Below are positions 20,041-51,891 of a DNA stretch of 64,000 nt, one piece after another. The notes under the pieces were generated by a model that searched no databases, had not been told where the DNA came from, and worked only from the letters and a program-made list of their open reading frames with translations. Every line of letters begins with the position of its first letter. Positions within the stretch are counted from its first letter, which is position 1. The translations under genes were made by a program, and so were the position numbers. Source of the stretch: Scylla paramamosain (lineage: Eukaryota; Arthropoda; Malacostraca; Decapoda; Portunidae); contig NC_087192.1 in assembly GCF_035594125.1 (NCBI RefSeq), forward strand, positions 12,990,501 through 13,054,500, written 5' to 3'.

Positions 20041-20347
20041 ACGCATTTAGTAAGGTTGTTCTATTTCTCAATTAAGAGTGTTATTCATAAGTTTCAGCAT
20101 TTACACGAGTTTTTGCGTTTTTTGCCTTGTGGATTTTTTGAACTATAAAACATTCATTATACATTTTTCTCGCAATGTTTTCTACGTAAAACACTGAGGA
20201 GACACGTTTTCAGTAATTTTCTTTTGGATTCCCACATAGAGTGAGTTCCTTATTATTTATCGTTTTGGTGCCTAACATGCTGAAAAACACTCAAAAGACA
20301 GATTTCTAGTAACGTCTTTAATTTCCTCATATGGGAGGCTTTGCATG
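20041..20347 (-). repeat. Inverted m2-m6 cassette, copy 2 (reverse, internally deleted)
   Basis: It has the same entry join ('gtttttgac|acgcatttag') and exit join ('tttgcatg|tcttttcagtg') as the other cassettes but is only about 307 bp long. Near 20,178 the sequence runs from m5 ('ctcgcaatg') directly into the m4/m3 border ('ttttctacgtaaaacac'), which accounts for the missing ~165 bp. Confidence 0.82.
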
Positions 20348-26151: not shown

Positions 26152-26236
26152 TGTACTTAAGCGTTTTATAGATAACTATAGATATAGATATAGATATAGA
26201 TATAGATATAGATGTACTTAAGCGTTTATAGATAAC
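26152..26236. repeat. TAGATA microsatellite flanked by a short duplication
   Basis: About six tandem TAGATA hexamers (about 26,176-26,212) lie inside reverse m10. They are flanked by two copies of 'gtacttaagcgttt(t)atagataac'-type sequence (26,153-26,175 and 26,213-26,235), split by the hexamers. The native monomer contains only one 'atagataac', so the tract probably grew by slippage after a short duplication. A run of Ser-Ile codons on the minus strand is a by-product. Confidence 0.88.
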
Positions 26237-26370
26237 ATGATCAAAAACACTCAAAATATATGTTTTTGGTAATGTTATTCTTTTTCTCCATAAAGTTTGT
26301 TTTGCATGCGTTTTAGCGGTTTGGTATATAAGGGGTTAAAAAATACTTCGTAAAAGTGGGTTTTTTTCTC

Positions 26371-26806
26371 ATGTAATGTGATCGTTCTGCTTTTTAGAGC
26401 TTTGTTGCATATCACGCTGAAAACACTCAAAAGATACTTTTTTGGTAATGTCATTTTTTTTCCCACATGAAGCTATTTCCGCATGTAATTTGGCATTTTC
26501 GTAACTAAGAATGTGAAAAACACTCAAAATACACAATTTGGTAAGGTAGTTCTGTTTTCGATTAAAACTGTTATTCATGCATTTATTCATGTAATGTGAT
26601 CGTTCTGCTTTTTAGAGCTTTGTTGCATATCACGCTGAAAACACTCAAAAGATACTCTTTTGGTAATGTCATTTTTTTTCCCACATGAAGCTATTTTCGC
26701 ATGTAATTTGGCACTTTCGTAACTAAGAATGTGAAAAACACTCAAAATACACAATTTGGTAAGGTAGTTCTGTTTTCGATTAAAACTGTTATTCATGCAT
26801 TTATTC
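26371..26806 (-). repeat. 218-bp near-identical tandem duplication
   Basis: The segment beginning 'atgtaatgtgatcg' at 26,371 repeats from 26,589, spanning m8, m7 and part of m6 in reverse. The copies differ at only a few bases (for example 'cattttcg' versus 'cactttcg' and 'atttccgc' versus 'attttcgc'). The junction shares 'cat' with both partners, consistent with unequal exchange or slippage at microhomology. Confidence 0.92.
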
Positions 26807-27770
26807 ATTTTGGTATGTAAGAAATTTCTCTATATACACGAGTTTTTGCGTTTATTGCCTTGTGGTTCTATTAAAACTATAAAACACTCATTTTACACGT
26901 TTCTCGTAATGTCCTTTTGTTTCCTAATATAGAGTGCTTTACATCCATTTTGGCATTTTTTTTGTAGGTAACAAGCTCAAAAACACTCAAAATATATCTT
27001 TTTAGTAATGTTATTGTATTTATTCATATAGGATGGTTTCTATCCGCTTTAGCGTTTTTCTACGTAAAACACTGAAAAGACACGTTTTCAGTAATTTTCT
27101 TTTGGATTCATATATTGACTGACTTCCAAATTATTTATCGTTTTTGGTGCCTACCTAACATGCTGAAAACACTGAAAAGACAGGTTTCTGGTAAAGTCGT
27201 TTAACTTCCCTATATAGGTGGCTTTGCATGCACTTTAGGGTTTGGTACATAACAATCCGAGAAAAAAGCTATAATTACCTTTACGATAATATTCTTTTTT
27301 CCACATAAATTCCCTGAATTGTTGCAGAATTTTGGCATCTCCGTACCTATGAAGATGAATAAAAAAAAAAAAAAAAAATCCCATTTTCTTATTTTTTATT
27401 TATTTTATTTTTTTTTCTAAAGAGTGTTATTTGTGGGTTTTAGCTTTTTGGTACTAAAGGAACTTAAAAATCACTCATAATACACGTTTCTCGTAATGTT
27501 CTTTCGTTTCCAAAACATAAGGTTCTTTACATGTAATTAAGCGTTTTTATAGATAACATGATCAAAAACACTCAAAATACATGTATTTGGTAATGTAATT
27601 CTGTTTCTCCATAAAAGTATTTTGGATGCGTTTTAGTGTTTTGGTACGTAAGGAGCTCAAAAACACTTAAAGGCAAGTTCTTGGTAAAATTTTCTTTTAT
27701 TCCCATGTAATGTGATTACCCTGGCTTTTAGTGCTTTATTGCGTAAGACGCTCAAAAACACTGAAAACAC

Positions 27771-28214
27771 ATGCAAAGCGTCCCATTTGAGGAAATCAAA
27801 GACCTTATCAGAAATCTGTCTTTTGAGTGTTTTTCAGCATGTTAGGCACCAAAACGATAAATAATATGGAACTCACTCTATGTGGGAATCCAAAAATAAA
27901 TTACTAAAAACGTGTCTTTTCAGTGTTTTACGTAGAAAAACGCTAAAACTGATACAAACCAACGAATATCAAGAAGCAGAAAAACATTTATTAAAAATGT
28001 ATATTTTGAGTGTTTTTAAGCTTGCTACCTACAAAAAAACGCGAAAATGGATACAAAGCAATCTATATTTGGAAACAAAGTGACATTGCGAGAAAAGTGT
28101 ATAATGAATGTTTTATAGTTCAAAAAAAAAAAAACACAAGGCAAAAAACGCAAAAACTCGTGTATATGCTGAAACTCTTAATTGAGAAACAGAGCAACCT
28201 TACTAAATGCGTGT
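27771..28214 (+). repeat. Inverted m2-m6 cassette, copy 3 (forward inside reverse block)
   Basis: Entry ('acac|atgcaaagcgtc') and exit ('aaatgcgtgt|caaaaa') match the other copies. It is about 444 bp long because the middle of m6 is missing near 28,170 ('gtgtatatgctgaaactc' joins two normally separate parts). Confidence 0.82.
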
Positions 28215-31200
28215 CAAAAATACTAAAAGGTAAGTTCTTCGTAAAAGTTGGTTTTATTCCCATTTAATGTGATTGCCCTGCTTTTTAGTGCTTTATTGCC
28301 TAACACGCTCAAAAACACTCAAAGACACTTTTCTGGTAATGTCATTTTTTTCCCACATTAAGCTAGTTTCGCATGGAATTTGGGGTTTTGATAACTAAGA
28401 ATGTAAAAAAAAAACACTTAAAATACACGCATTTAGTAATGTAGTTCTGTATCTTGATTAAGAGTGTTATTCATGAGTTTCAGTATTTTGGTATCTTAGA
28501 AACTTCTCCATACAGTCGAGGTTTGCGTTTTTTGCCTTGTGATTCTGGTGAAACTATAAAATATTCATGATACTTTTTTCTCGTTATGTCCTTTTTTTTC
28601 CTTATATAGAGTGCTTCGCATCCATATTCGCGTTTTTTTTTATGTAACAAGCTCAAGAACACACAAAATATAGTTTTTTGGTAATGTTATTCTATTTCTT
28701 TATATTGGTCAGTTTCCATCCATTTTAGCGTTTTTCTACGTAAATCTTTTAAAAGACGCGTTTCCAGTAATTTTGTTTTGGATTTCCACATAGAGTGACT
28801 CATATTATTTATGGTTTTGGTGCCTAACATTCTTTTTGATGCCTTTTGCTTCCCAATATAGAGTGCTTTCCATCCATTTTCGCGTTTTTTGTAGGTAAGA
28901 ATTTCAAAAAGTCTCAAAATATACCTTTTTGGTAATGTTATTCTATTTCTTTATTTTGGTTGGTTTGCATCCGTTTTAGCCTTTTCTACGTAAAACACCG
29001 AAAAGACAGTTTTTCAGTAATTTTGTTTTGGATTCGCATATAGATTGACTTCCTTGGGTTTTATCGTGTTGGTTCCTAACATGCTGAAAAACACTCATAA
29101 GGCAGTTTTCTGGCAAAGACGTTTAATTTCCCTATATATGTGGCTTTGTATGCAATTTAGGGGTTTGTTACATAACAGTCCGAAAAAAAAACCTAAATTT
29201 AACTTTTTTGATAATGTACTTATTTCATATAATTTCCTGAACTTTGCCCGAATATTGGCACCTCCTTACCTGTGAAGATGAATAGAAATGAAAAAAAAAT
29301 ATTGTACTTTTTTATTTATTTTTTTTTCTCAATAAAGAGTGTAATTTGTTGCTTTTAGCTTTTTCGTAGTTAATGAACTTAAAAACACTCATAATACACG
29401 TGTCTCGTAATGTCCTTTTGTTTCCAAAAAATAGGGTTCTTTGCATGTATTTAAGCGTTTTTATCGGTAACATGATCAAAAACACTCAAAATACATGTTT
29501 TGGTAATGTTATTCTGTTTCACCATAAAGTGTATTTTGCAGGCATTTTAGTGTTTTGGTATATAAGGAGCTCAAATACACTTAAAAGCAAGTTCTTGTTA
29601 AAAATTGGTTTTATTCCAATGTAATGTGATTGCCCTCTTTTTTAGTGCTTTATTGCCTATCACGCTCAAAAACACTCAGAAGACTCTTTTCTGGTAAAGT
29701 AATTTTTTTTCCCACAAATCTATTTTCGCATGCAATTTAGGGTTTTGGTAACTAAGAATGTGAAAAGCACTCAAAATACACGCATTTAGTAAAGTTGTTC
29801 TGTTTCTCAATTAGGAGTGTTATACACGAGTTTTAGCATTTTAGTATCTAGCAATCCTCTCCATATACACGAGATTTTGCGTTTTTTGCTTTGTTGTTCT
29901 TTTGAACTATAAAACACTCATTATACACTTTTCTTGCAATGTCCTTTTGTTTCGCAATATAGAGTGCTTTGCATCAATTTTCAAGTTTTTTTTTTGTAGG
30001 TAACAAGCTCAAAAACACTCAAAATATACCTTTTTAGTAACGTTTTTCTATTTCTTGATATTAGTTGCTTTGCATCCGTTTCAGCGTTTTTCTACGTAAA
30101 ACACTGAAAAGACACGTTTTCAGTAACTTTGTTTTGGATTCCCATATAGAGTGAGTTCCTTATTATTTATCGTTTTGGTGCCTAACACGCTAAAAAAAAA
30201 ACACTCAAAACACAGATTTCTGGTAATGTCGTTTAATTTCCTAATATAAGAGGCTTTGCATGCACTTTAGGGTTTGGTACATAACACTCCGAAAAAAAAA
30301 GCTGAAATTAACTTTTTTGATAATATTCTTTTATCATACGATTGCCCTGAATTTTCCCAGAATTTTGGCATCTCGTTACTATGAAGATGAATAACAAAAA
30401 AAAATGAAAAATTCCTATTTTTTTATTTTTTTATTTCGGTTTTTCTAAATAAAGAGTGTTATTTGTGGGTTTTAGCTTTATGGTACTTAAGGAACTTAAA
30501 AACACTTATAATTCTCATTTCTCGTAATGTCCATTCGTTTCGCAAACATAAGGTTCTTTGCATGTATTTAAGCGTTTTTATAGATAACATGATTAAAACC
30601 CTTAAAATATATGTTTTTGGTAATTTTATTCTGTTTCTCCATAAAAGGTGTTTTGCATGTGTTTTAGGGTTTTGGTATGTAATGAGGTCCAAAACACTTA
30701 AAAGCAAGTTATTGGTAAAAGTTGTTTTTATTACAATGTAATGTGATTACCCTGGTTTTTAGTGCTTTATTGCCTAACACGCTCAAAAACACTCAAAAGA
30801 CACTTTTCTGATAATATCTTTTTTTTTCCCACATAAAGCTAGTTTTGCATGGAATTTGGGGTTTTGGTAACTAAGAATGTGAAAAAAAAACTCAAAACAC
30901 AGGCATTTAGTAAGGTTGTTCTATTTCTTAATTAAAAGTGTTATTCATAAGTTCCAGCATTTCGGTATGTAAGAAACTTTTCTAATACACACATTTCGTA
31001 AGGTATTTCTGTTTCAAAATTAAAAGTGTTATTCATGATTTTCAGCTTTTTAGTATGTAAGAAACTTCTTTATGTACACGATTTTTTGAGCTTTTTCCCT
31101 TGTGGTTCTTGTCAAACTATGAAACACTCATACACGTTTCTCGTAATGTTCTTTTCTTTGCCAATATAAAGTGCTGTTCATCCATTTTTGCATTTTTTGT

Positions 31201-32974: not shown

Positions 32975-33447
32975 CATGCAAGGCCTCGCATATGATGAAA
33001 TAAGAGACCCTACCAGAAAACTGCCTTTTGAGTGTTTTTCAGCATGTTAGGCACCAAAACGATAAATAATAAGGAACTCACTATATGTGGAAATCCAAAA
33101 GAAAATGACTGAAAACGTGTCTTCTCAGTGTTTTACGTAAAACTGATGCAAACCAACCAATATCAAGAAGCAGAAAAAACATTACCAAAAATATATATTT
33201 TGAGTGTTTTTGAGCTTGTTACATACAAAAAACACAAAATTGATACAAAACACTCTATACTGGGAAACAAACGGACATTGCGAGAAAAGTGTATAATGAA
33301 TGTTTTATAGTTCAAAAAAACCACAAGCCAAAAAACGCAAAAACTCGTGTATATGGAGAAGCTTCTTCGATACTAAAATGCTGAAACTCATGAATAACAC
33401 TCTTAATTGAGAAACAATTAATTGAGAAACAATAACTAAATATGTGT
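32975..33447 (+). repeat. Inverted m2-m6 cassette, copy 4 (forward inside reverse block)
   Basis: It shows the same joins as copy 1, with which it shares details such as 'atgcaaggcctc' and 'cagaaaa' in m4. Near 33,405-33,432 a short direct duplication of 'aattgagaaacaa' is present in m6. Confidence 0.84.
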
Positions 33448-36400
33448 CAAAAACACTAAAAGGCAAGTTTTTCGTAAAAGTTGGTTTTATTCCCATGTAA
33501 TGTGATTGCCCTGCTTTTCAGTGCTTTATTGCCTAACATGCTCAAAAACACTCAGACACTTTTCTGGTAATGTCATTTTTTTCCCACATAAAGTTAGTTT
33601 CGCATGGAATTTGGGGTTTTGGTAACTAAGAATGTAAAAAAACACTCAAAATACACGCATTTAGTAAGGTAGTTCTGTTTTTCAATTAAAAGTGTTATTC
33701 ATGCATTTCAGCATTTTGGTATGTAAGAAACTTCTCTATATACACGAGTTTTTGCGCTTTTTGCCTTGTGGTTCGTGTGAAACTATAAAACACTCATCAT
33801 ACACGTTTCTCGTAATGTTCTTGTTTCGCATTTTTTCTACGTAACAAGCTGAAAAACACTCAAAATATATCTTTTTGGTAATGTTATTCTATTTCTTCAT
33901 ATTGGTTGGTTTGCATCCGTTTTAGCGTTTTTCTTCGTAAATGACTGAAAAGACACGTTTATAGTAATATTGTTGAAATTGCTGAAAAAACACTCAAAAG
34001 ACAGATTTCTGGTAAAGTCTTGTAATTTCCCCATATAGATGGCTTTGCATGCACTTCTTTGTTTGGTACATAATTCCGGAAAAAAGCTAAATTTTTTTTT
34101 TTTATATGTCCTTTCGTTTCACAGACATAGGGTTCTTTGCATGTTTTTAAGCGTTTTTATAGGTAACATGATCAAAAAACATTCAAAATACATGTTTTTG
34201 GTAATGTTATTCTGTTTCTCCATAAAGGGTGTTTTGCATGCTTTTTAGCGTTTTGGTATGTAAGGAGTTAAACACACTTAAAGGCAATTTCTTCGTAAAA
34301 GTTAGTTTTATTCCTATATAATGTGATTATTCTGTTTTTTAGTGCATTGTTGCATATCACACTTAAAAACACTCAAAAGACACTTTTCTGATAATATCAT
34401 TTATTCCCACAGAAAGCTAGTTTCGCATGTAATTTGGGATTTTCGTAACTAAGAATGTGAAAAACACTCAAAATGCACACATTTGGTAAGGTAGTTCTGT
34501 TTCTCAATTAAAAGTGTTATTCATGAGTTTTAGCATTTTGGTATGTAAGAAACCTCTATATACACGAGTTTTTGCGTTTTTTGTCTTGTGGTTCTTGTGA
34601 AACTATAAAATAATCATTATACACGTTTCTCTAAATGTCCTTTTGCTTCCCAATATAGAGTGCTTTTACATCCATTTTCGCGTTTTTTGTAGATAAAAAG
34701 CTCAAAAACACTTTTTGGTAATGATATTCTATTTCTTCATATTTGTTGCTTTGCATCCCTTTTAGCGTTTTTTCCACGTGAAACACTGAAAAGACACGTT
34801 TTCAGTAATTTTGTTTTGGATTCACATATTGACTGACTTCCATATTATTTATCGGTTGGTGCCTAACATGCTGAAAAACACTGAAAAGACAGGTTTCTGG
34901 TAAACTCGTTTAATTTCCTCATATAAGTGGCTTTGCATGTACTTTAATGTTTGGTAAATAACAATCCGAAAAAAAGCTATAACTAACTTTTTTGATAATG
35001 TTCTTTTTTCCTCATAAATTCTTTGAATTTTGGCAGAATTTTGGCATCTCGGTACCAGTGAAAATCAATACAAAAAAATGCAAATATTTATTTATTTATT
35101 TTATTTTATTTTCTCTCTTTAATGAGTTATTTTTGGTTTTTAACGTTTTGGTACTTAAGAAACTTAAACAGTCATAATACACGTTTCTCGTAATGTCCTT
35201 TCGTTTCCGAAAGATAGGCTTCTTTGCATGTATTTAAGCGTTTTTATAGATAACATGATCAAAAACACTTAAAACATGTTTTTTGTAATGTTTTTCTGCT
35301 TCTTCATAAAGGAGTGTTTTGCATGCGTTTTAGCGTTTTGGTATGTAAGGAGCTCAAAACACATAATGGCAAGTTCTTGGTCAAAGTTGGTTTTATTTCC
35401 ATGTAATGTGATATCCCTGCTTTTTAGTGCTTTATTGCCTAACACGCTCAAAAACACTCAAAAGACACTTCTGGTAATGTCATTTTTTTCCCACATAAAG
35501 CTAGTTTCGCATGCTATTTGGGATTTTGCTAAGAATGTGAAAAACACTGAAAATACACGCTTTTGGTAAGGTTTTTCTTTTTCTCAATAAAGATTGTTGT
35601 TATTCATGAGTTTCAGCATTTTGGTATCTAAGAAACTTGGTATCTAAGTATCTAAGAAACTTTGGTATCTAAGACACTCATTATACACGTTTCTCGTAAT
35701 GTCCTTTTGTTTCCAAATAGGGAGTGGTTTGCATCCATTTTCACCTTTTTTTGTAGGTAACAAGCTCAAAAACACTCAAAATATACCTTTTTGGTAATGT
35801 TAATCTATTTTTTTCATATTGGTTGGTTTGCATCCGATTTAGCGTTTTTCTACGTAAAACACCGAAATGACACGTTTTCAGTAATTTTGTTTCCCATATA
35901 AAGTGACTTCCATGTTATTTATCGTTTTGGTGCCTAACATGCTGAAAAACACTCATCAGACAGTTTTCTGGCAAAGTCGTTTGATTTCCCTATATAGGTG
36001 GTTTTGCATGCACTATAGGGTTTGCTACATAACAGTCGAAGAAAAAAAAGCTAAAATTATCTTTTTTGATAATGATCTTGTTTAACAAAATTTCATGAAT
36101 TTTGCCCGAATTTTGTCATCTCGGTACCTGTGGAGATGAATAAGAAAGAAAAAAATATGTTGTATTTATTTATTTATTTATTTTTCTCAATAGAGAATTA
36201 TTTGTGGCTTTTAGCTTTTTGGTTCTTAATGAATTTAAAAACACTCATAATACACGTTTCTCGTAATGACCTTTCGTTTTCCACAAATAGGGTTCTTAGC
36301 ATGTATTTAAGCGATTTATTGGTAAAATGATCAAAAACACTCAAAATACATGTTTTTGCTAATGTTATTCTGTTTTTCCATAAAGTGTGTTTTGCATGCG

Positions 36401-37454
36401 TTTTAGTGTTTTGGTATATAAGGAGCTCAAAAACACTTAAAGGCAAGTTCTTCGTAAACATTGGTTTTATTCCCATGTAATGTTATTGCCCTTCTTTTTA
36501 GTGCTTTACTGCCTATCACGTTCAAAAACACTCAATAGACACTTTTCTGAAAATGCCATTTTTTTTTTTTTTTTACCACATAAAGCTGGTTTTGCAATGA
36601 ATTTGGGTTTTGGGTAACTAAGAATATGAAAAGCACAAAAATACACGCATTTAGTAAGGTTGTTCTGTTTCTCAATTAAGAGTGTTATTCATGAGTTTCA
36701 GCATTTTGATATCTAGGAAACTACTCCATATACACGAGTTTTTGCGTTTTTTGCTTTGTTGTTATTTTGAACTATAAAACACTCATTATACACTTTTCTC
36801 GCAATGTCCCTTTCTTTCTCAATATAGAGTGCTTTGCATCAATTTTCGCGTTTTTTTTTTTTGTAGGTATCAAGCTCAAAAACACTCAATATGTACCTTT
36901 TTCGTAATATTTTTCTATTTCTTGATATTGGTTGGTTTGCATCTGTTTTAGCGTTTTTCAACGTAAAATACTGAGAAGACACGTTTTAATTAATTTTGTT
37001 TTGGATTCACATATTGAGTGAGTTCATTATTATTTATCATTTTGGTGCCTAACATGCTGAAAAACACTCAAAAGACGATTTTCTGGTAAAGTCATTTAAT
37101 TTCCTAATATAGGAGGCTTTGCATGCTCTTTAGGGTTTGGTCCGAAAAAAAAGCTAAAATCAACTTTTTTGATAATATTCTTTTATCATATAATTGCCCT
37201 GAATTTTCCCAGAATTTTGTCATCTCGGTACCTATGAAGATGAATGATAAATTTTTTTTTTTTTTTTTTTTTTCTAAATAAAGAGTGTTATTTGTGGGTT
37301 TTAGCTTTTCGGTATTTAAGGAACTTAAAAACACTCATAATACACGTTTCTCGTAATGTCCTTTCGTTTCCCAAACATAAGGTTCTTTTTATGCATTTAA
37401 GCGTTTTTATCTATAATATGATCAAAAACACTCAAATTACATGTTTTTTGTGTT
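33448..37454 (-). repeat. Satellite array block, reverse orientation
   Basis: HOR seams lie near 35,050, 36,123 and 37,215. Most of it is a direct copy of 22.38-26.0 kb (offset about 11.26 kb), sharing even unit-specific details such as the deletion at 34,095 and the 'ggagctcaaaacacataatgg' region of m9. Around 35,620-35,670 'ggtatctaagaaactt' is locally multiplied. The block ends inside m10, where the diverged region starts. No gene is seen. Confidence 0.9.
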
Positions 37455-37965
37455 TTTTTATTCCCATATGGTGATCTTTCCATGCTTTTTAGCATTCTGG
37501 TACCTAGCAGATTCATAAACATTCAAAAGACACGTTTCATTAAATTTAGTTTTGTTTGTTAGTGGGCTTCCATACATTTTGGCGTTTTGGCACCTAACAA
37601 TATGAAAAAAAACACTCAAAATACACGTTTTTCGTAATGTTGTTATGTTTATCCATAGAGTGCTATTCATGCGTTTTCACATTTTGCTACCTAAGAAGCT
37701 CAAATTTACTCATAATACACGTTTCTCGTAATGTCTTATTCTTTCTTCATATAGAATACTTTGCATACATTATGGCGTTTTTCTTCCTAACAAGCTCAAA
37801 CACTCTCAAATGATTTCTTTTTGGTGATATTATTCTGTTTTTCCATAAAGTGTGTTTTTCATGCATTTTACATTTTTGGTACGTAAGAAGGTGAAAAAAA
37901 AAATCTTAAAAGACACGTTTTGGGCAAAGTAGTTTTTTATTTTTTTTATTTCCATGTATATGTGT
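37455..37965 (-). repeat. Diverged satellite monomers, reverse (types e-d-c-b-a-e)
   Basis: About five and a half monomers have the same length and boxes as the main array but clearly different sequence. Reading along the plus strand the order is e, d, c, b, a, e. Type d ends 'acctaacaatatg', c has 'ccatagagtgctattcatg', b has 'cttcatatagaatactttgc', and a has 'tttttccataaagtgtg'. The A/T seam and the m1 monomer of the main HOR are absent. It meets a forward copy of the same family near 37,965 in a T-rich stretch. Confidence 0.78.
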
Positions 37966-39993
37966 ATATAAACTTGTTAACTACAAAACAGTAAAAAGCA
38001 TGAAAACTTCCCTATACTGGAAAAGCAAAAACAACATTTTTTTAGTATTTTTCAGCTACTAACGTACAAAAACGCTAAAATGCTTGCAAAAATCCCTTCA
38101 TGGAAAAAACAAATAACCTTACCAGAAACTAGTATTTCATTTTATTTTTTAAGCTTGTCACGTACAAAAGCGCCAAAATCCATGCAAAGTACACTATATA
38201 TGGATACGAAAGTGCATTACGAGAAACGTGCAGTATGAGTGTTTTCAAATTATTAGGTACCAAAACGCTAAAGCGAATGAATAGCACTCTATATGGAGAA
38301 ACAAAAACGCAAAAATGCATGAAAAACATCATATATGAGGGAAAATACGACACTTCTAGAAACGTGTCTTTTCTGTGTTTGTAATCGTATTAGGTACCAA
38401 AACGCTAAAAAGCATGGAAAGAACCATACATGGGAAAACAAAACATTACAAAAAAGTCTTTTCATTGTTTTGAGCTACTTACATACTAAAACGCAAAGGC
38501 GCATGCAAAACACCTTTTATGGAGAAACAGCAAAACGTGTATTTTTAATGTTTTAAGATAATTACGTAAAAAAATTTCAAAATTCATATAAAGTTCCCAA
38601 TATGGGGAAACGAAAAGACATTACGAGAAACGTATATTATAATTGTTTTACACCTTTATTAGGTTGAAAAATACAAAAATGCATGAATACCACTCTATAT
38701 GGAGTAACAGAGCAACATTACTAAAAACGTGTATTTTGTTTGTTTTAACAATGTTATGTACCAAAACGTCGAAATTCATGCAAAGTTCAATCTATGGGAG
38801 AAACGAAACGAAATTTCCAGAAACGTAAATTTTGAGTGTTTATGAGCGTGTTAGGCACCAAAACTCTAAAAAATAAAAATGGAAAGCATTCTATATGGGA
38901 ATAAAAAACAAAATTATAAAAAAATAGTATTTTTTTAGTGTTTTTGAGCTACTTTTATATCAAAACGCTTGAACAGACGCAAAACACGCTTTATGGAAAA
39001 ACAAAATAACAATACGAAAAAACTATATTTTCAGTGTTTTTGAGGTATGTAAGAAGAATAACGCCGAAATGTATGTAAAGTTCCCTATGCCGAGAGAAAC
39101 GTGTATTATGAGAGGTTTTGAGCTTTTTAGGTACCAAACACAAAGGCACCTTAATAGTACTCTATATGGAGAAACAAAACAACACGAATGAAAATATATA
39201 TTTTGAGTGGTTTTCATATTATTAGGTACCAAAGCGCAAAAATACATGCAAAGACCTCTAAAAGACGACACAAAACGAAATTACAAGAAACCTATCTTTT
39301 GAGAGTGTTTCTACGTGTTAGGCACCAAGACAATAAGAGGTATGAAAAGAGCACTATGTTGGAAGGGAAAAAGAAATAACCAACAAAGTGACTTTTCACG
39401 TGTTTGGAAGTTTTTAAATTTATAATGTACCAAAACGATAAAACATGCAAAACACCCTTCCTGCAGAAACATAAAACATTACCAAAAAAGAGCATTTTGA
39501 GCGATTTTTCAGCTTGTTATGTACATAAGCGTCAAAATGGATATAAAGTACCCTATATAAGAAAACGAAAAGACATTAAGAGAAACCAATATTACGAGTT
39601 TTTTTTTATTTTTTAGCTTATTAGGTACCGAAACGATAAAACGCACGATTTGCCTTATGTATGGAGAAAACGTGTATTTCAAAAGTATTTAGCTTTGTTA
39701 GGTATCAAAAGGCCAAAATGCCTGCAAAGCACCCGATATGGGCAAAATAAACGACATTTCCAGAAACATGTCTTTTGAGAGTTTATGAGTGTGTTAGGCA
39801 CAAAAAGCTCTTAAAAAGCATGGAAAGTACCGTAAATGGGAAAACATTGTTTGAGCTACTTACGTACCAAACTGCTAAAACGGTTGGAAAATACACTTTA
39901 TGGAGAAACTCAACAGATTTACCAAAAACATGCATTTTGAGAAATTTTGCGCCTGTTACGTACAAAAACGATAAAATACATGCAAATAACCCT
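37966..39993 (+). repeat. Diverged satellite with strict 5-monomer period (a-b-c-d-e)
   Basis: About 23 forward monomers can be assigned to five types by their boxes. Type a has 'agctacttac' and 'tttatgga'; b has 'agcttgttacgtac' and 'ccctatat..ga', ending 'acgagaaacgt.ttat'; c has 'attaggtacc', 'gaatagcactc' and 'tatggagaaac'; d has 'catgcaaag' and ends 'ccagaaac.tgtctttt'; e has 'gtgttaggcacc', 'agcatggaaag' and 'tatgggaa'. The order b, then (a b c d e) four times, then a b, is unbroken apart from local truncations. The type a starts near 38,054, 38,472, 38,946, 39,408 and 39,853 give a period of about 420-475 bp. Each monomer differs clearly from the next of its type, so this is old sequence. 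No gene is seen. Confidence 0.8.
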
Positions 39994-41428
39994 AAACCTA
40001 TAAAAACGCTTAAATACATCTAAAGGACCCTATGTTTGTATAACAAAAGGACATTACGAATATCGTGTATTATGAGTGTTTTTAAGTTACTTAAGTACCA
40101 AAAAGCTAAAACACACAAATAACACTCTTTATAGAGATGATTTCTTTTTTTTTGTTATTCATCTTCATAGTTACCGAGATGCCAAAATTCCGGCAAAATT
40201 AATGGAAATTTGTAAAAAAAAAAACATTATATAAAAAATATTTTTAGCTTTTTTCCGGAGTTATGTACAAACACTGAACCAACTTTTACCAAGAACTTGC
40301 CTTGAAGTGTTTTTTAGCTCCTTATATACCAAATCGCTAAAAAACGCATGCAAAACACTCCTTTATAGAGAAGCAGAATAACATTACCAAAAAACAAGTG
40401 TTTTTGAGTGTTTTTTTTATCATGTTACCTATAAAAACGCTTAAATACATGCAAAGATCCCTATATTTGGGAAACGAAAGGACATTACGAGAAATGTGTA
40501 GTATGAATGTTTTTAAATTGCTTAAGTACCAAAACGTTAAAACCTACAAATAACACTCTTTATAAAGAAAAAAATTAAATAAATAAAAAATAGCATTTTT
40601 ATTTTTTTGTTATTCATGTCCATAGGTACCAAGATGCCAAAATTCTGCCAAAATTCAAGGAAATTATGTGGAAAAAAAGAACATTATCAAAAAAGTTAAT
40701 TTTACATTTTTCCGGGGTTATGTACCAAACCATAAAGTGTATGCAAAGCCACCTATTCGGGAAAATTTAACGACTTTACAGGAAACCTGTCTTTTGAGTG
40801 TTTTTACGCATGTTAGGCACCAAAACGATAAATAATATTAAAGTCACTCTATATGGAAATCCAAAACAAAATTACTGAAAACGTGTCTTTTAAAAGATTT
40901 ACGTAAAAAAACGCTAAAACGGATGCAAACCAACGAATATGAAAAAAATAGAATAATATTACCAGAAAAGTATATTTTGTGTGTTTTTTCGCTTGTTACA
41001 TAAAAAAAAACGCAAAAATGGATGCAAAGCACTGTATATTAGGAAAAAAAAATGGACATAACGAGAAACGTGTATAATGAGTGTTTTATAGTTTCACCAG
41101 AATCACAAGGCAAACAACGCAAAAACTCGTCTGTGTGGAGAAGTTTCTAAGATACCAAAATGCTGAAACTCATGAATAACACTCTTAATCAACAAACAGA
41201 ACAACCTTACTAAATGCATGTATTTTGAGTGTTTTTTACATTCTTAGTTACCAAAACCCCAAATTCCATGCGAAACTAACTTTATGTGGGAAAAAAATGA
41301 CATTACCAGAAAAGTGTCTTTGAGTGTTTTTGAGCATGTTAGGCAATAAAGCACTAAAAAGCAGGGCAATCACATTACATGGGAATAAAACCAACATTTA
41401 CGAAAAACTTGCCTTTTAGTGTTTTTGA
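39994..41428 (+). repeat. Satellite array block, forward orientation
   Basis: The main HOR resumes within m10 ('acctataaaaacgctt'). Seams lie near 40,170 and 40,627. Near 40,277 the sequence jumps from m2 ('gtacaaacactga') into the end of m8 ('accaacttttaccaag'), so one unit is shortened to about 450 bp. The right part (from about 40.9 kb) is nearly the same as 61.8-62.3 kb. No gene is seen. Confidence 0.88.
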
Positions 41429-41902
41429 CACGTATTTAGTAAGGTTGTTCTGTTTCTCAATTAAGAGTGTTATTCATGAGTTTCAGCATTTTAGTATCTA
41501 GGAAGCTTTTCCATATACACGAGTTTTTGCGTTTTTTGGCTTGTGGTTTTTTTGAACTATAAAACATTCATTATACACTTTTCTCGCAATGTCCCTTTGT
41601 TTCCCAATATAGAGTGTTTTGTATCAATTTTGTGTTTTTTTGTATGTAACAAACTCAAAAACACTCAAAATATATATTTTTGGTAATGTTTTTCTGCTTC
41701 TTGATATTGGTTGGTTTGCATCAGTTTTAGCGTTTTTCTACGTAAAACACTGAGAAGACAAGTTTTCAGTAATTTTCTTTTGGATTCCCACATAGAGAGA
41801 GTTCCTTATTATTTATCGTTTTGGTGCCTAACATGCTGAAAAACACTCAAAAGACAGATTTCTGGTAAGGTCTCTTATTTCCTCATATACGAGGCCTTGC
41901 AT
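41429..41902 (-). repeat. Inverted m2-m6 cassette, copy 5 (reverse inside forward block)
   Basis: It is a complete 475-bp copy with joins 'gtttttgac|acgtatttag' and 'ccttgcatg|tcttttgagtg'. It is flanked on both sides by m8, so the forward order reads m7-m8-(m6 to m2 inverted)-m8-m9. It is very similar to copy 8 at 62.3 kb. Confidence 0.87.
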
Positions 41903-44515
41903 GTCTTTTGAGTGTTTTTGAGCGTGTTACGCAATAAAGCACTAAAAGGAAGGGCAATCACATTACATGGGAATAAAACCAAATTTTACCAAGAACTTGC
42001 CTTTAAGTGTTTTTGAGCTCCTTACATACCAAAACACTAAAACGCCTGCAAAATACATTTTATGGAGAAACAGAATAATATTACCAAATACATGTATTTT
42101 GAGTGTTTTTGATCATATTATCTATAAAAACACTTAAATACATGCAAAGAACCTAGAAACGACATTACAAGAAACGTGTATTATGAGTGCTTTTTAAGTT
42201 CTTTCAGTACCTAAAAGCTAAAACCCACAAATAACACTCTTTATTTAGAAAAAAAAAATAATAAACAAAAAAAATAAAAAAATGGGATATTTTTTTTTGT
42301 TATTCATCCTTATAGGTACCGAGATGCCAAAATTCTGCCAAAATTCAGGGAATTTATGTGGAAAAAAGAACATTAACAAAAAAGTTAATTATAGCTTTTT
42401 TTTTCGGATTGTTAAGTACCAAACCTTAAAGTGCATGCAAAGACACCTATATAGGGAAGTTAAACGACTTTATCAGAAACCTGTCTTTTCAGTGTTTTTC
42501 AGCATGTTAGGCACCAATACGATAAATAATATGGAAGTCAGTCGATATGTGAATCCAAAACAAAATTACTGAAAACGTGTCTTTTCAGTGTTTTACGTAG
42601 AAAAACACTAAAGCGGATGCAAACCAACCTATATGAAGAAATAGAATAACATTACTAAAAAGATATATTTTGAGTGTTTTTGAGCTTGTTACCTACAAAA
42701 AATGCAAAAATGGATGTAAAGCACTCTATATTAGGAAACAAAAGGACTTTACGAAAAACGTGTATAATGAGTGTTTTATAGTTTTAAAACAACCACAAGG
42801 CAATAAACGCAAAAACTCGTGTATATAGAGAAATTTCTTACAAACCGAAATGATGAAATGCATGAATAACACTTTTAATCAATAAACAAAACTACCTTAC
42901 CATATTGTGTATTTTGAGTGTTTTTCACATTCTTAGTTACGAAAATGCCAAATTACATGCGAAACTACCTTCATGTGGGGAAAAAAAAATGACATTACCA
43001 AAAAAGTGTCTTTTTAGTGTTTTTGAGCGTGATATGCAACAATGCCCTAAAAAGCAGAACAATCACATTACATGGGAATAAAACCAACTTTTACGAAGAA
43101 CTTGCCTTTAAGTGTTTTTTAACTCCTTACATACCAAATCTCTAAAACGTATGGAAAACACCCTTTATGGAGAAACAGAATAACATTACCAAAAACATGT
43201 ATTTTGAGTGTTTTTGATCATTTAACCTATAAAAACTCTTAAATTCATGTAAAGGACTCTATGTTTGTATAACAAAAGGACATTACGAAAATCGTGTATT
43301 ATGAGTGTTTTTAAGTTACTTAAGTACCAAAAAGCTAAAACCCACATATAACACTCTTTATAGAGAGATTTTTTTTTTGTTATTCATCTTCATAGTTACC
43401 GAGATGCCAAAATTCTGGCAAAATTCATGGAAATTTTGTAAAAAAAAAAAATAATAATAATGTTAACTTTTTTCCGGAGTTATGTACAAACCCTGAAGTG
43501 TATGCAAATCCACCTATATGGGGAAATTACACGACTTTACCAGAAACCTGTCTTTTGAGTGTTTTTCAGCAATAATAACAATATTACTGAATACGTGTCT
43601 TTTCAGTGATTTACGTAGAAAAACGCTAAAACGGATGTAAACCAACCAATATGAAGAAATAGAATAATATTAACAAAAAGATATATTTTGATGTGTTTTT
43701 GAGCTTGTTACCTACAAAAAATGAAAAAATGGATGGAAAGCACTTTATATTGGCAAAGAAAAGGACATTACGAGAAACGTGTATGAGTGTTTTATAGTTT
43801 GACAAGAACCAGAAGGAAAAAAATTCAAAAACTCGTGTAAAATAAAGAAGTTTCTTGCATACCAAAAAGCTGAAACTCATGAATAACACTTTTAATTTTG
43901 AAACAGAAATACCTTACCAAATGTGTGTATTAGAAAAGTTTCTTACATACCAAAATGCTGGAACTCATGAATCATATTTTTAATTAAGAAATAGAACAAC
44001 CTTACACTATGCCTGTGTTTTGAGTTTTTTTTCACATTCTTAGTTACCAAAACCCCAAATTTCATGCAAAACTAGCTTTATGTAAGAAAAAAAAAATGAT
44101 ATTACAAGAAAAGTGTTTTTTGAGTGTTTTTGAGCGTGTTAGGCAATAAAGCACTAAAAAGCAGGGTAATAACATTACATGGGAATAAAAACAACTTTTA
44201 CCAAGAACTTGCCTTTAAGTGTTTTAGAGCTCATTACATACCAAAACGCTAAAACGCATGCAAAACACCTTTTATGGAGAAACAGAATAAAATTACCAAA
44301 AACATATATTTTGAGGGTTTAGATCATGTTATCTATAAAAATGCTTAAATACATACAAAGAACCTTATGTTTGCGAAACGAAATGACATTACGAGAAATG
44401 TGTATTATAAGTGTTTTTAATTTTTTTAAGTACCAAAAAGTTAAAACCCACAAATAACACTCTTTATTAAAAAATAAAAATAAAGGAAATAAAAAAATAG
44501 GAATTTTTTTTTTTG

Positions 44516-45626
44516 TTATTCATCTTCATAGGTACTGAGATTCCAAAATTCTGGGAAAATTCAGGGCTATTATATGATAAAAGAAAATTATCAAGAAAGT
44601 TAATTTTAGCTTTTTTTTCGGACTGTTATATACCAAACCCTAAAGTGCATCCAAAGACTCCTATATGAGGAAATTAAACGATCTTACCAGAAATCTGTTT
44701 TTTGAGTGTTTTTCAGCATGTTAGGCACCAAAACGATAAATAATAAGGAACTCACTCTCTATGAGAATCCAAAACAAATTTGCTGAAAACGTGTCTTTTC
44801 AGTGTTTTACGTAGAAAAACGCTGAAACGGATGCAAACCAACCAATATCAAGAAATAGAAAAACATTACCAAAAAGGTATATTTTGAGTGTTTTTGAGCT
44901 TGTTACCTACAAAAAACGGGAAAATTGATGCAAAGCACTCTATATAAGAAAAGAAAAGGACTTTGCAAGAAAAGTGTATAATAAGCTTTTATAGTTCAAA
45001 CGAACAAAAAGGCAAAAAACACAAAAACTCGTGTATATGGAGAATGTTCCTAGATACCAAAATGCTGAAACTCATGAATAACAGTCTTAATTGAGAAACA
45101 GAACAACCTTACTAAATGCGTGTATTTTGAGAGCTTTTCACATTCTTAGTTATCAAAACCCCAAATTGCATGCGAAACCACCTTTATGTGAGGAAAAAAA
45201 TGACATTACCAGAAAAGTGTCTTTTAAGTGTTTTTGAGCGTGATAGGCAATAAAGCACTAAAAAGCACGGCAATCCTATTACATTGGAATAACACCAATT
45301 TATACCAAAAAACTTGCCTTTAAGTGTTTTTGAGCTCTTTATATAACAAACCGCTAAAACGCATGCAAAACAAACTTTATGGAGAAACAGAATAACATTA
45401 CCAAAAACATATATTTTGAGCGTTTTTTGATCATGTTATCTATAAAAATATTTAAATACATGCAAAGAACATTATGTTTGGGAAACAAAAGGACATTACG
45501 AGAAACGTGTATTATGAGTGTTTTTTAAGTTCCTTCAGTACCAAAAAGCTAAAACCCACAAACAACTTTCTTTATTTAGAAAATAAGAAAATATAAAAAA
45601 TATAAAAAATAGGAATTTTTTTTTTT
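44516..45626 (+). repeat. Representative 1.11-kb higher-order repeat unit with monomer map
   Basis: One clean unit is used here as the reference. Approximate monomers: m1 44,516-44,606; m2 44,607-44,702; m3 44,703-44,799; m4 44,800-44,884; m5 44,885-44,981; m6 44,982-45,128 (a half monomer plus a full one, about 147 bp); m7 45,129-45,225; m8 45,226-45,321; m9 45,322-45,416; m10 45,417-45,513; m11 45,514 to about 45,580, then the A-rich/T-rich seam to 45,626. By their boxes m3 and m8 are type e of the diverged block, m4 and m9 type a, m5 and m10 type b, m6 and m11 type c, and m2 and m7 type d. The unit is thus two 5-mers plus m1, the seam and the extra part of m6. Confidence 0.85.
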
Positions 45627-48600
45627 GTTATTCATCTTCATAGTACCGAGATGCCGAAATTCTGGGAAAATTCAGGGCAATCGTATGATAAAAGAATATT
45701 ATCAAAAAAGTTAATTTCAGCTTTTTTTTTTCAAACTGTTATGTACCAAACCCTAAAGTGCATACAAAGTTTCCTATATAAAGAAATTAACGATCTTACC
45801 AGAAATCTGTGTTTTGAGTGTTTTTTAGCATGTTAAGCACCAAAACGATAAATAATAAGGAACTCACCTCTATATGGGAATCCAAAACAAAGTTACTGAA
45901 AATGTGTCTTCTCAGTGTTTTACGTAGAAAAAAGCTAAAACGGATGCAAAGCAACCAATATCAAGGAATAGAAAAACGTTACTAAAAAGGTATATTTTGA
46001 GTGTTTTTGAGCTTATTACCTACAAAAAACGCGAAAATTGATGCAAAGCACTCTATATTGGTAAACAAAAGGACATTGCAAGAAAAGTGAATAATGATTG
46101 TTTTATAGTTCAAAAGAACCACAAGGCAAAAAACGCAAAATCTCGTGTATATGGAGAGGTTTCCTAGATACAAAAATGCTAAAACTCATGTATAACACTC
46201 CTAATTGAGAAACAGAACAACCTTAATAAATGCGTGTATTTTGAGTGCTTTTCACATTCTAAGTTACCAAAACCCCAAATTGCATGGGAAAATAGATTTG
46301 TGGGAAAAAAAATGACTTTACTAGAAAAATGTCTTTTAAGTGTTTTTGAGCGTGATAGGCAATAAAGCACTAAAAAGGAGGGCAATCACATTATATTGGA
46401 GGAAAACGAATTTTTACCAAGAACTTGCCTTTAATTGTTTTTGAGCTCCTTATATACCAAAACTCTAAAACGCCTGCAAAACACTCTTTATGGTGAAACA
46501 GAATAATATTACCAAAAACATATATTTTGAGTGTATTTGATTATGTTACCAATGAAAACGTTTAAATACATGCAAAGAACACTATTTTTGGGAAACGAAA
46601 GGAGATTACGAGAAACGTGTATTATGAGTGTTTTTAACTTCATTAATTACCAAAAAGCTAAAAGCCACAAATAACACTCTTTATTGAGAAACAATAAATA
46701 AATAAAAAAAATACGATATTTTTTTTTCTTTCTTATTCATCTTCACTGGTACCGAGATGCCAAAATTCGGGCAAAATTCAGGAAATTATGTGAAATAAGA
46801 ACATTATCAAAAAAGTTAAATTTAGCTTTTTTTTCGGACTATTATGTACCAAACCCCTAAAGTGCATGCAAAGCCACCTATATGGGGAAATTATACGTTT
46901 TTGCCAGAAAACGGTCTTATGAGTGTTTTTCAGCATCTTAGGAACCAACACGACAAATAACATGGAAGTCAATCTATATGGGAATCCAAAACAATATTAC
47001 TAAAAACGTGTCTTTTCGGTGTTTTACGTAGAAAAACGCTAAAACGGATGCCAACCAACCAATATGAAGGAATAAAATAACATTACCAAAAAGGTATATT
47101 TTGAGTGTTTTTGAAATTGTTACCTACAAAAAACGCGAAAATAGATGGAAAGCTCTCTATATTGGGAAGCAAAAGGACATTACGAGAAACGTGTATAATG
47201 TGTGTATTATAATTTCACAAGAACTACAAGACAAAAAACGCAAAAACTCGTGTATATAGAGAAGTTTCTTACATTCCAAAATGCTGAAACTCTGGAACAA
47301 CACTTTTAATTGAGAAACAGAACAATCTTACTAAATGCGTGTATTTTGAGTGCTTTTCACATCCTTAGTTACCAAAACCCCAAATTGCATGCGAAACCAG
47401 CTTTATGTGGGAAAAAAATGACATTACCAGAAAAATGTCTTTTGAGTGTTTTTGTGCGTGTTAGGCAATAAAGCACTAAAAAGCAGGGCAATCACATTAC
47501 ATTGAAATAAAACCAATTTTTAACAAGAACTTGCCTTTAAGTGTATTTGAGCTCCTTATATACCAAAACACTAAAATGCATGCAAAATACACTTTACATT
47601 GAAACAGAATAACATTACCAAAAACATGTATTTTGAGTGTTTTTGATCATGTTACCAATAAAAACGCTTAAATACATGCAAAGAACCCTTCTTTTGGGAA
47701 ACGAAAGGACATTACGAGAAACGTGTATTATGAGTGTTTTTAAGTTCATTAAGTACGAAAAAGCTAAAAGCCATAAATTACACTCTTTATTGAGAAAAAA
47801 AAAAAAAATAAAAAAATACGATATTTTTTTTCATTCTTATTCATCTTCACAGGTAAGGAGGTGCCAAAATTCGGGCAAAGTTCAGGAAATTATATAAAAT
47901 AAGAACATTATGAAAAAAGTTACATTTAGCATTTTTTTTGAACTGTTATGTATCAAACCCCTAAATTGCATGCAAAGCCACCTATATAGGGAAATTAAAC
48001 GTCTTTGCCAGAAAACTGTCTTATGAGGGTTTTTCAGCATGTTAGGAACCAACACGATAAAACCCAAGGAAGTCAATCTATATGGGAATCCAAAACAAAA
48101 TTACTGAAAACGTGTCTTTTTGGTGTTTTACGTAGAAAACGCTAAAACGCATGCAAACCAACCAAAATGAAGAAATAGAATAACATTACCAAAAATGTAT
48201 ATTTTGAGTGTTTTTTAAATTGTGTATTTTGAGTGTTTTTAACATTCTTAGTTACGAAATTGGCAAATTACATGCGAAACTACCTTTATATGGGAAAAAA
48301 AATGACATTACCAGAAAAATGTCTTTTCAGTGTTTTTGAGCGTGATATGCAACAAAGCACTAAAAAGCAGAACAATCACATCACTTGGGAATAAAACCAA
48401 CTTTTACGAAGAACTTGCCTTTAAGTGTTTTTTAACTCCTTATATACCAAAACGCTAAAACGCATGTAAAACACCCTTTATGGAGAAACAGAATAACATT
48501 ACCAAAAATATGTATTTTGAGTGTTTTGATCATGTTACCTATAAAAACGCTTAAATACATGTAAAGAACCCTATGTTTGTATAAGTAAAGGACATTACGA

Positions 48601-50012: not shown

Positions 50013-51427
50013 GCAAAAAACGCAAAAATTCGTGTATATAAAGAAGATTCTTAGATACCAAAATGCTGAAACTCATGAATAACAATCTTAATTGGGAAAG
50101 AGAACAACATTACCAAATCCGTGTATTTTGAATGTTTTTTTTCACATTCTTAGCAAAACCCCAAATAGCATGCGAAAGTAGCTTTGTGGGAAAAAAATGA
50201 CATTACCAAAAGTGTCTTTTGAGTGTTTTTTGAGCGTGTTAGGCAATAAAGCACTAAAAAGCAAAGCAATCATATTACATTGGAATAAAACCAACTTTTA
50301 CCAAGAACTTGCCTTGAAGAGTTTTTCAGCTCCTTACATACCAAATCGCTAAAACGCATGCAAAACTCTTTTATGCAGAAGCAGAATAACATTACCAAAA
50401 ACAAGTGTTTTTGAGTGTTTTTTATCATGTTACCTATAAAACCGCTTAAATACATGCAAAGATCCCTATAATTGGGAAAGGAAAGGACATTACGAGAAAT
50501 GTGTATTATGAATGTTTTTAAGTTCCTTAAGTACCAAAACGTTAAAACCTTCAAATAACATTCTTTATAAAGAAAAAATAATAAACAAAAAAATAGCATT
50601 TTTATTTTTTTGTTATTGATGCTCATAGGTACCAAGATGCCAAAATTCTGCCAAAATTCAGGAAAATTATGTGGAAAAAACATTATCGAAAAAGTTAATC
50701 TTACCTTTTTTTTCGAAGTTATGTTCCAAACCATAAAGTGTATGCAAAGCCACCTATCTGATAAAATTTAACGAATTTACAAGAAAGCTGTCTTTTGAGT
50801 GTTTTTCTGCATTATAGGCACCAAAACGATAAATAATATGAAATTCACTCTCTATGGAAATCCAAAACGAAATTACTGAAAATGTGTCTTTTAAACGATT
50901 TACGTAGAAAAACGCTAAAACGGATGCAAACCAACCAATATGAAGAAATAGAATAACATTACCCAAAAAGTATATTTTGTGTGTTTTTTAGCTTGTTACA
51001 TAAAAAAAAATGCGAAAATGGATGCAAAACTCTCTATATAAGAAAAAAGAGAACATAACAAGAAACGTATATAATGAGTGTTTTATAGTTTCACCAGAAT
51101 CACAAGGCAGAAAACGCAAACACTTGACTGTATGGAGAAGTTTCTAAGATACCAAAATACTGAAACTCATGAGTAACACTCTTAATCAAGAAACAGAACA
51201 ACCTTACTAAATGCGTGTATTTTGAGTGTTTTTTTACATTCTTAGTTACCAAAACCCCAAATTCCATGCGAAACTAGCTTTATGTGGGAAAAAAATGACA
51301 TTACCAGATATGTGTCTTTTAGTGTTCTTGAGCCTGTTAGGCAATAAAGCACTAAAAAGCAGGGCAATGACATTACATGAGAATAAAACCAACTTTTACG
51401 AAGAACTTGTCTTTTAGTGTTTTTGAC

Positions 51428-51891
51428 ACGCATTTACTAAGGTTGCTCTGTTTCTCAATTCATGAGTTTCAGCATTTTGGTATATAGGAAACTTCTCCAT
51501 ATGCACGAGTTTTTGCGTTTTTTGCCTTGTGGTTTTTTTGAACTATAAAATATTCATTAACCACTTTTCCCGCAATATCCCTTTCTTTTCCAATATAGAG
51601 TGCTTTGTATCAATTTTCGCGTTTTTTTTTTGTAGGAAACAAGCACAAAAAACTCAAAATATACATTTTTGGTAATGTTATTCTGCTTCTTGATATTGGT
51701 TGCTTTGTATCAGTTTTAGCGTTTTTCTACATAAAACACTAAGAAGACACGTTTTCAGTTATTTTCTTTTGGATTCCCATATAAAGTGAGTTCCTTATTA
51801 TTTATCGTTTTGGTGCCTAATATGCTGAAAAACACTCAAAAGACAGATTTCTTGTAAGGTCTTTAATTTCGTCATATGGGGGGCTTTGCAT
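51428..51891 (-). repeat. Inverted m2-m6 cassette, copy 6 (reverse inside forward block)
   Basis: It has the same joins and flanking m8 monomers as copy 5, and is about 464 bp long because part of m6 is missing near 51,458 ('ctcaatt|catgagtttc'). Confidence 0.85.

What the first reader, a model, noticed from the sequence alone, without database searches (positions are those of the whole stretch)
37455..39993. Diverged island preserves an ancestral a-b-c-d-e five-monomer repeat
Some 23 forward monomers fall into five types in unbroken cyclic order, and the reverse part follows the same order mirrored. The 1.1-kb HOR monomers can be assigned to the same five types in the same order (d e a b c d e a b c for m2-m11). 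This suggests that the modern HOR arose by doubling of an older 5-mer, with m1, the seam and part of m6 added. The island lacks these additions and has not been homogenised, although modern array flanks it on both sides.
Basis: partly seen in the sequence, partly recalled or inferred. Interest (0 to 1): 0.78.

Follow-up and report, generated by a model that had tools for sequence, protein, structure and literature searches.

The report
Fossil pentamer block inside crab satellite
A tandem-repeat array, probably of a crab or related crustacean, carries a block that still shows the older five-part repeat from which the present twelve-part repeat was built, and that block has itself been copied many times around the genome.

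Summary
The window is a ~96-bp satellite array, mostly a 12-part ~1.1-kb higher-order repeat (HOR: H1-H11 plus a 52-bp H12). At about 37455-39996 the order becomes an unbroken five-type cycle (22 monomers plus a stub on +, five on -). HOR monomers pair with it as a=H1/H6 (weakest), b=H2/H8, c=H3/H9, d=H4/H10, e=H5/H11; H7 and H12 are additions. Island-only clustering is rejected. Block monomers lack the private changes of either HOR half, so the HOR descends from this 5-mer.

The "unhomogenised relic" needs correcting. A 32-base signature of the island occurs at 237 places in the host genome, both strands, at least 33 contigs. Twenty fetched copies and the window average 97.4% identity (chosen among the best matches), while HOR units are 85% alike whether neighbours or far apart. 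The window's island is a copy, cut at both ends, of an older block of about 8-9 kb. Multi-kb blocks carrying the HOR, often with its frozen ancestor, are the present unit of copying. Closest precedent: human alpha satellite (ancestral pentamer; dead layers). New variant of a known kind.

The parts
37414..37954 (-). minus part of the island: c-head/H4-tail hybrid 37414-37504, b 37505-37594, a 37595-37691, e 37692-37787, d 37788-37883, unassigned tail 37884-37954
37955..37991 (.). strand switch at 37954/37955 (inversion centre) and, just beside it, the 32-base signature 37960-37991
   Evidence: switch; 237 places genome-wide with up to 3 mismatches, reversed-pattern control 0
37980..38392 (+). 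island turn 1: c 37980-38062, d 38063-38160, e 38161-38255, a (truncated) 38256-38300, b 38301-38392
38393..38853 (+). island turn 2: c 38393-38481, d 38482-38564, e 38565-38661, a 38662-38756, b 38757-38853
38854..39320 (+). island turn 3: c 38854-38955, d 38956-39051, e 39052-39129, a 39130-39224, b 39225-39320
39321..39796 (+). island turn 4: c 39321-39425, d 39426-39519, e 39520-39623, a 39624-39700, b 39701-39796
39797..39996 (+). island last part: c 39797-39862, d 39863-39958, 38-bp e stub to 39996
37422..37455 (.). left junction island c | H4 tail | H5; shared with L012, L013, L017, L021 and L023, which form one clade with the window
   Evidence: for L023 from monomer labels, not one continuous alignment
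39990..40003 (.). right junction e stub | complete H5; shared with L012, whereas L018, L024 and L025 continue with other sequence fitting an e monomer
33449..37413 (-). left flank: 12-part HOR, minus orientation
39997..41426 (+). right flank: 12-part HOR, plus orientation (H5 H6 H7 | H3 H4 ...)
45053..46166 (+). example HOR unit: H1 45053-45148, H2 -45245, H3 -45341, H4 -45438, H5 -45536, H6 -45642, H7 -45741, H8 -45835, H9 -45922, H10 -46018, H11 -46114, H12 (52 bp) 46115-46166

Best explanation
The island is a copy, cut at both ends, of an old satellite block that keeps the pre-HOR organisation: tandem five-monomer units (a-b-c-d-e, ~480 bp) of a ~96-bp satellite. Two diverged 5-mers of this lineage, plus two additions (H7 after the second a; the 52-bp H12 after the second e), became the 12-part ~1.1-kb HOR, which spread over many contigs. 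Later, multi-kb blocks holding HOR stretches, in many cases with the old block and its inversion centre, were copied in both orientations within and between contigs. Each new unit of amplification froze the previous one inside it: 5-mers ~72% alike, HOR units ~85%, old-block copies ~96-100% in the sample taken. Shown: the 5-mer order, the pairing by type, the number of signature places and the shared junctions. Well supported but alignment-sensitive: the branching order. Inferred: the copying mechanism (recombination or replication of long segments), the time order in absolute terms, and a centromeric or pericentromeric location. The block is most likely a passenger without a function of its own.
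For: 5-mer order without labels. Blind labels. Further monomers: in the old block outside the window-homologous part (C25b), cyclic steps are 28 of 37, 11 of 14 and 9 of 12 with HOR+island profiles (0 of 5000 shuffles each); with HOR-only profiles 23 of 37 (0 of 5000) and 7 of 14 (46 of 5000). Pairing and trees. Branching, with 59 of 69 such monomers (10 dropped for low margin): sites derived in both halves but not the block 7, block+first half 1, block+second half 0, first half only 21, second half only 20, block only 3; bootstrap 494 of 500. Copies: 39 other places at 94-97% over the whole 501-base query, only 40 candidates scored; 237 signature places, 118 + and 119 -, control 0; 21 copies mean 0.9735. 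Carried together: between the window and the five copies sharing its left junction, the HOR left flank is 95.9-97.5% and the island 98.05-98.6% alike; these six form one clade, 100/99. HOR 0.85 at all distances.
Against: With one cruder alignment (MAFFT of consensuses) the branching count was 6 against 5 and 0, bootstrap only 266 of 500; with a third alignment 6, 2, 0 and 440 of 500; with a laxer outgroup threshold it was 8, 5, 0. The a type is weak: HOR-only profiles call all four + side a's d, and island a is as near H4 as H1 by identity (0.83, 0.82). Island c is near H9 but H3 is not among its best three. At the right end of the old block HOR-only labels show no order (1 of 12; 4 of 11). 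Gene conversion between HOR halves could mimic shared derived sites. H7 and H12 have no clear source. Lags 9 and 13 also stand out in the block's middle segment, perhaps from lost or gained monomers.
Confidence: 0.85

Rival explanations
1. The island is a degraded, secondary 5-mer made from one half of the HOR by deletion and re-amplification.
For: Island d is clearly nearest H4 (0.91 against 0.85 for H10) and a is nearer H1 than H6 (0.82 against 0.76); both edges of the island join at or just before H5.
Against: At sites private to the first half, island cells are 10 derived, 95 ancestral, 18 third base; at sites private to the second half 11, 96, 14: about the noise level (similar). Island c is nearer the second half (H9 0.85, H3 0.76). 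Sites joining the block with one half: 1 and 0, against 7 joining the two halves (less clear).
Confidence: 0.05
2. The island is a unique relic that escaped homogenisation because it sits at an orientation switch (the 'segment cut off' idea described for alpha satellite).
For: It lies at a switch (37954/37955) between oppositely oriented HOR flanks; a passage of PMC2729386 names inversion as one way in which segments get excluded from homogenisation.
Against: It is not unique: 237 signature places and closely alike copies. The HOR around it is not locally homogenised, so no escape is needed. The idea may still explain why the 5-mers inside were not re-homogenised before block copying.
Confidence: 0.07
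3. The old block is a mobile element that picked up satellite DNA and spreads by itself.
For: Many places, balanced orientation, many contigs.
Against: Copies end at different points; in 11 of 20 fetched copies the right end passes into the HOR at the same d|H9 labels, in two more at H8|H9, and HOR flanks travel with it. Not done: a search of the block for coding sequence and a systematic search for target duplications.
Confidence: 0.04

Closest known systems
Human alpha satellite suprachromosomal family 3 and the ancestral pentamer
   Same: A longer HOR built from an ancestral five-monomer repeat. Passages of PMC4496801 list SF3 as W1-W5 with a pentameric ancestral arrangement; titles on an ancestral pentamer were seen in reference lists only. 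That the X-chromosome 12-mer DXZ1 is two pentamers plus two monomers is recalled, not read.
   Different: Unrelated ~96-bp monomer, decapod host, and the 5-mer stage itself survives as an array; a table note in PMC4496801 says that in live domains the ancestral arrangement can only be observed or deduced from monomer order within a HOR unit.
Dead layers of ancestral alpha satellite flanking human centromeres
   Same: Older, more diverged stage of the same satellite next to the younger HOR (passages of PMC9549924, PMC4496801 and PMC2729386).
   Different: There the layers lie outward in a rough age gradient; here the old layer lies among HOR stretches and recurs at many places, copied as part of blocks.
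Patchwork HOR blocks (orangutan alpha satellite)
   Same: Distinct blocks form a patchwork (start of the abstract of PMC12428378, seen in the listing).
   Different: There blocks share only 80-90% identity as independent expansions; here closely alike blocks contain 85% alike units, the reverse nesting.

Membership tests
Satellite with higher-order repeat organisation | Diverged monomers in fixed order repeat as a larger unit that is more alike than its monomers | tested here: met
   Identity 0.818 at lag 12 against 0.61-0.69 at lags 1-11; within-type 0.80-0.88; order H1-H12 across the window
Satellite with higher-order repeat organisation | Neighbouring units homogenised (more alike than distant ones) | tested here: not met
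   0.851 at <1.5 kb, 0.848-0.862 at longer distances for nine of the 12 parts; 0.851-0.857 in and between three other stretches, for monomers that fit a HOR type clearly
HOR derived from an ancestral pentamer | HOR monomers fall into five types in cyclic order | tested here: met
   H1-H6 pairing moderate; H7 and H12 excepted
HOR derived from an ancestral pentamer | Pentameric array without the HOR's private changes | tested here: met
   less clear with the alignment
Dead ancestral satellite layer | More diverged than the younger layer | tested here: met
   p-distance 0.272 against 0.142/0.152
Dead ancestral satellite layer | Lies outside the younger array in an age gradient | tested here: not met
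   HOR on both sides in the window and in the three 30-kb stretches; HOR labels in all 20 fetched loci
Centromeric satellite | Carries the centromeric histone | not testable with these tools
   Only clustering seen: on C4, C13, C28 and C42 the listed places lie within 0.8-1.4 Mb, but C8 and C22 have two separate sites and several contigs only one listed place
Alpha satellite | ~171-bp monomer of primates | tested here: not met
   Commonest piece lengths 95-97 bp; host a decapod by an insert
Mobile element | Fixed termini with target duplications | tested here: inconclusive
   Ends vary between the 20 fetched copies; target duplications not searched

The most novel reading that the evidence does not exclude
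In this genome the unit of satellite amplification has climbed through discrete stages (monomer, 5-mer, 12-part HOR, multi-kb mosaic block), each freezing the last. The present stage copies whole mosaic blocks in random orientation between chromosomes by a mechanism other than local unequal crossing-over, for instance circular DNA or break-induced replication, so ancestor and descendant satellites are amplified together. The old block's inversion centre might even promote that copying.
Probability: 0.3. Interest if true: 0.78.

Novelty: new variant of a known kind. Interest (0 to 1): 0.62.

Why it matters
How higher-order repeats arise is mostly deduced from monomer order inside the finished unit. 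Here the precursor 5-mer array and its 12-part descendant lie side by side, and the precursor exists in many copies, so the steps (which monomers were added, how far the halves had diverged before amplification, whether copying works by local exchange or by long blocks) can be measured directly. The flat 85% identity of HOR units at all distances argues against local homogenisation as the force that keeps this satellite alike.

Tried and rejected
Host identification by satellite DNA failed: three bacterial or archaeal matches in genome contigs, none in viral contigs, two unrelated papers by sequence word. Rfam (gathering threshold) and tRNA scans of the window were empty. Pfam gave nothing above cut-off for the three frames tried in the two inserts. 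Six-part doubling (H1=H7, H6=H12) was considered: HOR identity at lag 6 is raised (0.687) and H12 is H6's best partner, but H7 does not pair with H1 and has no clear type, so 5+5 plus two additions fits better. I first read the island as a unique relic at an inversion; the genome search overturned that. Paper searches that gave nothing on this satellite; none of the 15 papers listed holds 'higher-order repeat', which is weak evidence, and I make no claim that decapod HORs are unpublished. Genome-wide counts of the two junctions and of HOR units were not obtained (tool busy).

Full report
WHAT THE WINDOW IS. The 64 kb is one AT-rich satellite with a ~96-bp monomer, read by a cyclic two-strand profile: 867 bases fall outside it with the permissive settings, 5724 with the stricter ones. 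Most of it is a 12-part HOR of about 1.1 kb, H1-H11 plus a 52-bp H12, with many switches of orientation. The window lies at G000:C42:12990501-13054500 of an unnamed 1.21-Gb assembly in 234 contigs. A retroelement-like insert (so judged by eye; no Pfam hit above cut-off) at 3727-4082 encodes a protein tail 92% identical to a Scylla paramamosain protein; all six hits that bear a name are decapods (Scylla, Penaeus, Macrobrachium). The host is therefore a decapod, perhaps a portunid crab (inference).

THE OBSERVATION. At 37414-39996 the H1-H12 order breaks down. The pieces follow a five-type cycle: 22 monomers plus a 38-bp stub on + and five on -. Identity by lag, using no type labels, peaks at 5, 10 and 15 (0.714, 0.714, 0.744; other lags 0.623-0.658; 0 of 1000 shuffles), also with profile-free alignments (z 8.1, 0 of 5000). 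With type profiles trained only on the HOR outside the island, 17 of 22 labels fall in cyclic order against a best of 14 in 100000 shuffles. The five misses are one c and all four + side a, called d, so the a type rests on the tree, on its place in the cycle and on an ATGAATA head in three of five. Minus side: 4 of 5.

RELATION TO THE HOR. Shared departures from the generic monomer pair H2-H8, H3-H9, H4-H10 and H5-H11 as reciprocal bests. H1's best is H4 (-11.3) with H6 second (-12.7); H6's best is H12 (-11.9) with H1 second (-12.7). Island consensuses score best with a:H1 (H4 nearly equal), b:H2 then H8, c:H9 (H3 not in the best three), d:H4 then H10, e:H5 then H11. In the consensus tree (H1,H6), (H3,H9) and (H5,H11) are pairs (84/84, 85/67, 93/82) with island a, c and e as their sisters; b and d are unresolved. 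In a tree of 81 monomers (five drawn at random from each of H1-H11, 26 of the 27 island monomers; the 45-bp a was left out) the a, b, c and e types form clades with their HOR partners (95/81, 97/77, 98/84, 99/96); d is unresolved and one a (39624) falls with d. Holding the 26 island monomers together costs 89 log units, pAU 2e-5, on only 94 columns. The HOR thus reads a b c d e a [H7] b c d e [H12]. H7 and H12 show no clear type.

WHICH IS OLDER. Mean p-distances of individual monomers: island-island 0.272, first half-first half 0.142, second-second 0.152, first-second 0.291, island-first 0.301, island-second 0.307 (columns where H6 or H9 lack alignable sequence left out). The halves are almost as far from each other as from the island; their consensuses differ at 85 of 425 sites. 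Polarised by the other types, the window island gave 6 sites derived in both halves only, 1 with the first half, 0 with the second (bootstrap 486 of 500). Other alignments gave 6/5/0 (266 of 500) and 6/2/0 (440 of 500). Using only old-block monomers from outside the window-homologous part (59 of 69 kept; at most one straddles its edge) gave 7/1/0, 494 of 500, and 3 changes private to the block against 21 and 20 in the halves; at a laxer threshold 8/5/0. The block's consensus 5-mer is therefore probably close to the ancestor, and island monomers carry the halves' private changes only at about noise level. The extra monomers are as far from each other (0.277) as from the window's island (0.274), as expected of one array.

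The island core (37500-38000) has 39 other full-length matches at 94-97%; with the window itself they lie on 16 contigs. Only 40 of 10371 first-look candidates were scored. A 32-base signature beside the inversion centre (37960-37991) occurs at 237 places including the window, 118 + and 119 -, against 0 for the reversed pattern, with up to 3 mismatches; the 100 listed places (39 exact) lie on 33 contigs by my count. I fetched 20 copies on 14 contigs, all chosen, so they are biased towards likeness to the window. All 20 show the same inversion centre in their monomer labels. On the left, 15 of 20 continue with further a-e monomers where the window turns into HOR, and the three stretches followed further hold several kb of them with another inversion; on the right 15 of 20 continue for about 1.3 kb before the HOR, 11 of them ending at d|H9 labels. 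In three 30-kb stretches the whole old block measures about 8-9 kb by labels. The extra monomers (69 of 60 bp or more in one copy) also follow the cycle: 28 of 37, 11 of 14 and 9 of 12 steps with HOR+island profiles (0 of 5000 shuffles each). HOR-only profiles give 23 of 37 (0 of 5000), 7 of 14 (46 of 5000) and, at the right end, 1 of 12 (no order); a second copy of the same block gives similar numbers but is not independent. Nearest HOR consensus of the 69: H4 30, H5 9, H9 8, H8 6, H1 5, H2 4, H11 4, H10 3, never H3, H6 or H7; H12 was not scored.

BLOCKS. Twenty-one copies (20 loci plus the window) average 0.9735 substitution identity (210 pairs, 0.960-1.000), 0.981 on the same contig (9 pairs) and 0.973 on different ones (201); with gaps counted, they match the window at 93-98%. 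The window and the five copies that share its left junction form one clade (100/99), and L012, which also shares the right junction, is its sister (99/98). Between those copies and the window the HOR left flank is 95.9-97.5% alike and the island 98.05-98.6%: they travelled together. Inside the window, 4-5 kb blocks recur at 87-93% in both orientations. By contrast single HOR units are about 0.85 alike at every distance within the window (nine of 12 parts), and within and between three 30-kb stretches of C25 and C28 (0.851-0.857; 8167 pairs between stretches, 2.4% of them at 0.95 or more).

READING. Four nested levels: monomer types ~65% within the island, 5-mers ~72-73%, HOR units ~85%, old-block copies 96-100%. 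I infer that the unit of amplification moved up each time and froze the former unit, and that local exchange between neighbours is not what keeps this satellite alike. The pathway is inferred, not shown. Two non-satellite inserts, 15% HOR divergence and many inversions fit what passages of PMC4496801 and PMC9549924 describe for dead satellite, but the spread of blocks shows that the material was still being copied later. No function for the block is needed.

PRECEDENTS. Alpha satellite offers a pentameric ancestor (SF3) and dead ancestral layers (passages; titles only). The new elements here are an unrelated satellite, survival of the 5-mer stage as an array among HOR stretches, and its copying in blocks. 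I searched ten times in the paper library and do not claim that nothing like it is in print.

Noticed in passing
12302-12776, 32977-33448, 41427-41901, 51425-51890, 56378-56851, 62311-62788: A ~475-bp block of opposite orientation with the same contents (H8 tail-H9-H10-H11-H12-H1 head) recurs beside H3: probably one rearrangement spread by copying. Variants at 12777-13298, 20038-20345, 27765-28215 and 61785-62310.
   Followed up: partly
3727-4082: Retroelement-like insert; minus-strand tail 92% identical to a Scylla paramamosain protein.
   Followed up: yes
56907-57415: Second non-satellite insert, reverse-transcriptase-like by eye on the minus strand; no Pfam hit above cut-off.
   Followed up: partly
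8237-13299 / 40901-45998; 22172-26167 / 33449-37407; 40902-43101 / 61784-64000: Multi-kb duplications within the window at 93% (inverted), 90% (ending at the island's left edge) and 95%.
   Followed up: partly
18651-19096; 26369-26808: Recent small tandem duplications (225 bp twice at 100%, 218 bp twice at 98%) in otherwise 85% alike HOR.
   Followed up: no
45537-45642: H6 carries an A-rich then T-rich tract in place of the middle of an a-type monomer in five of the six H6 copies printed (the sixth is shortened); its origin is open.
   Followed up: no
L028 and L029 (contigs C34 and C29): Island pieces of 1.07 kb without a substitution between two contigs, flanked by HOR in matching order: a very recent interchromosomal copy or an assembly effect.
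   Followed up: no
listing (genome G000): The signature falls into sequence subfamilies (for example many places with the same two mismatches, on C4, C13, C16 and others) that my 20 fetched copies did not sample.
   Followed up: no
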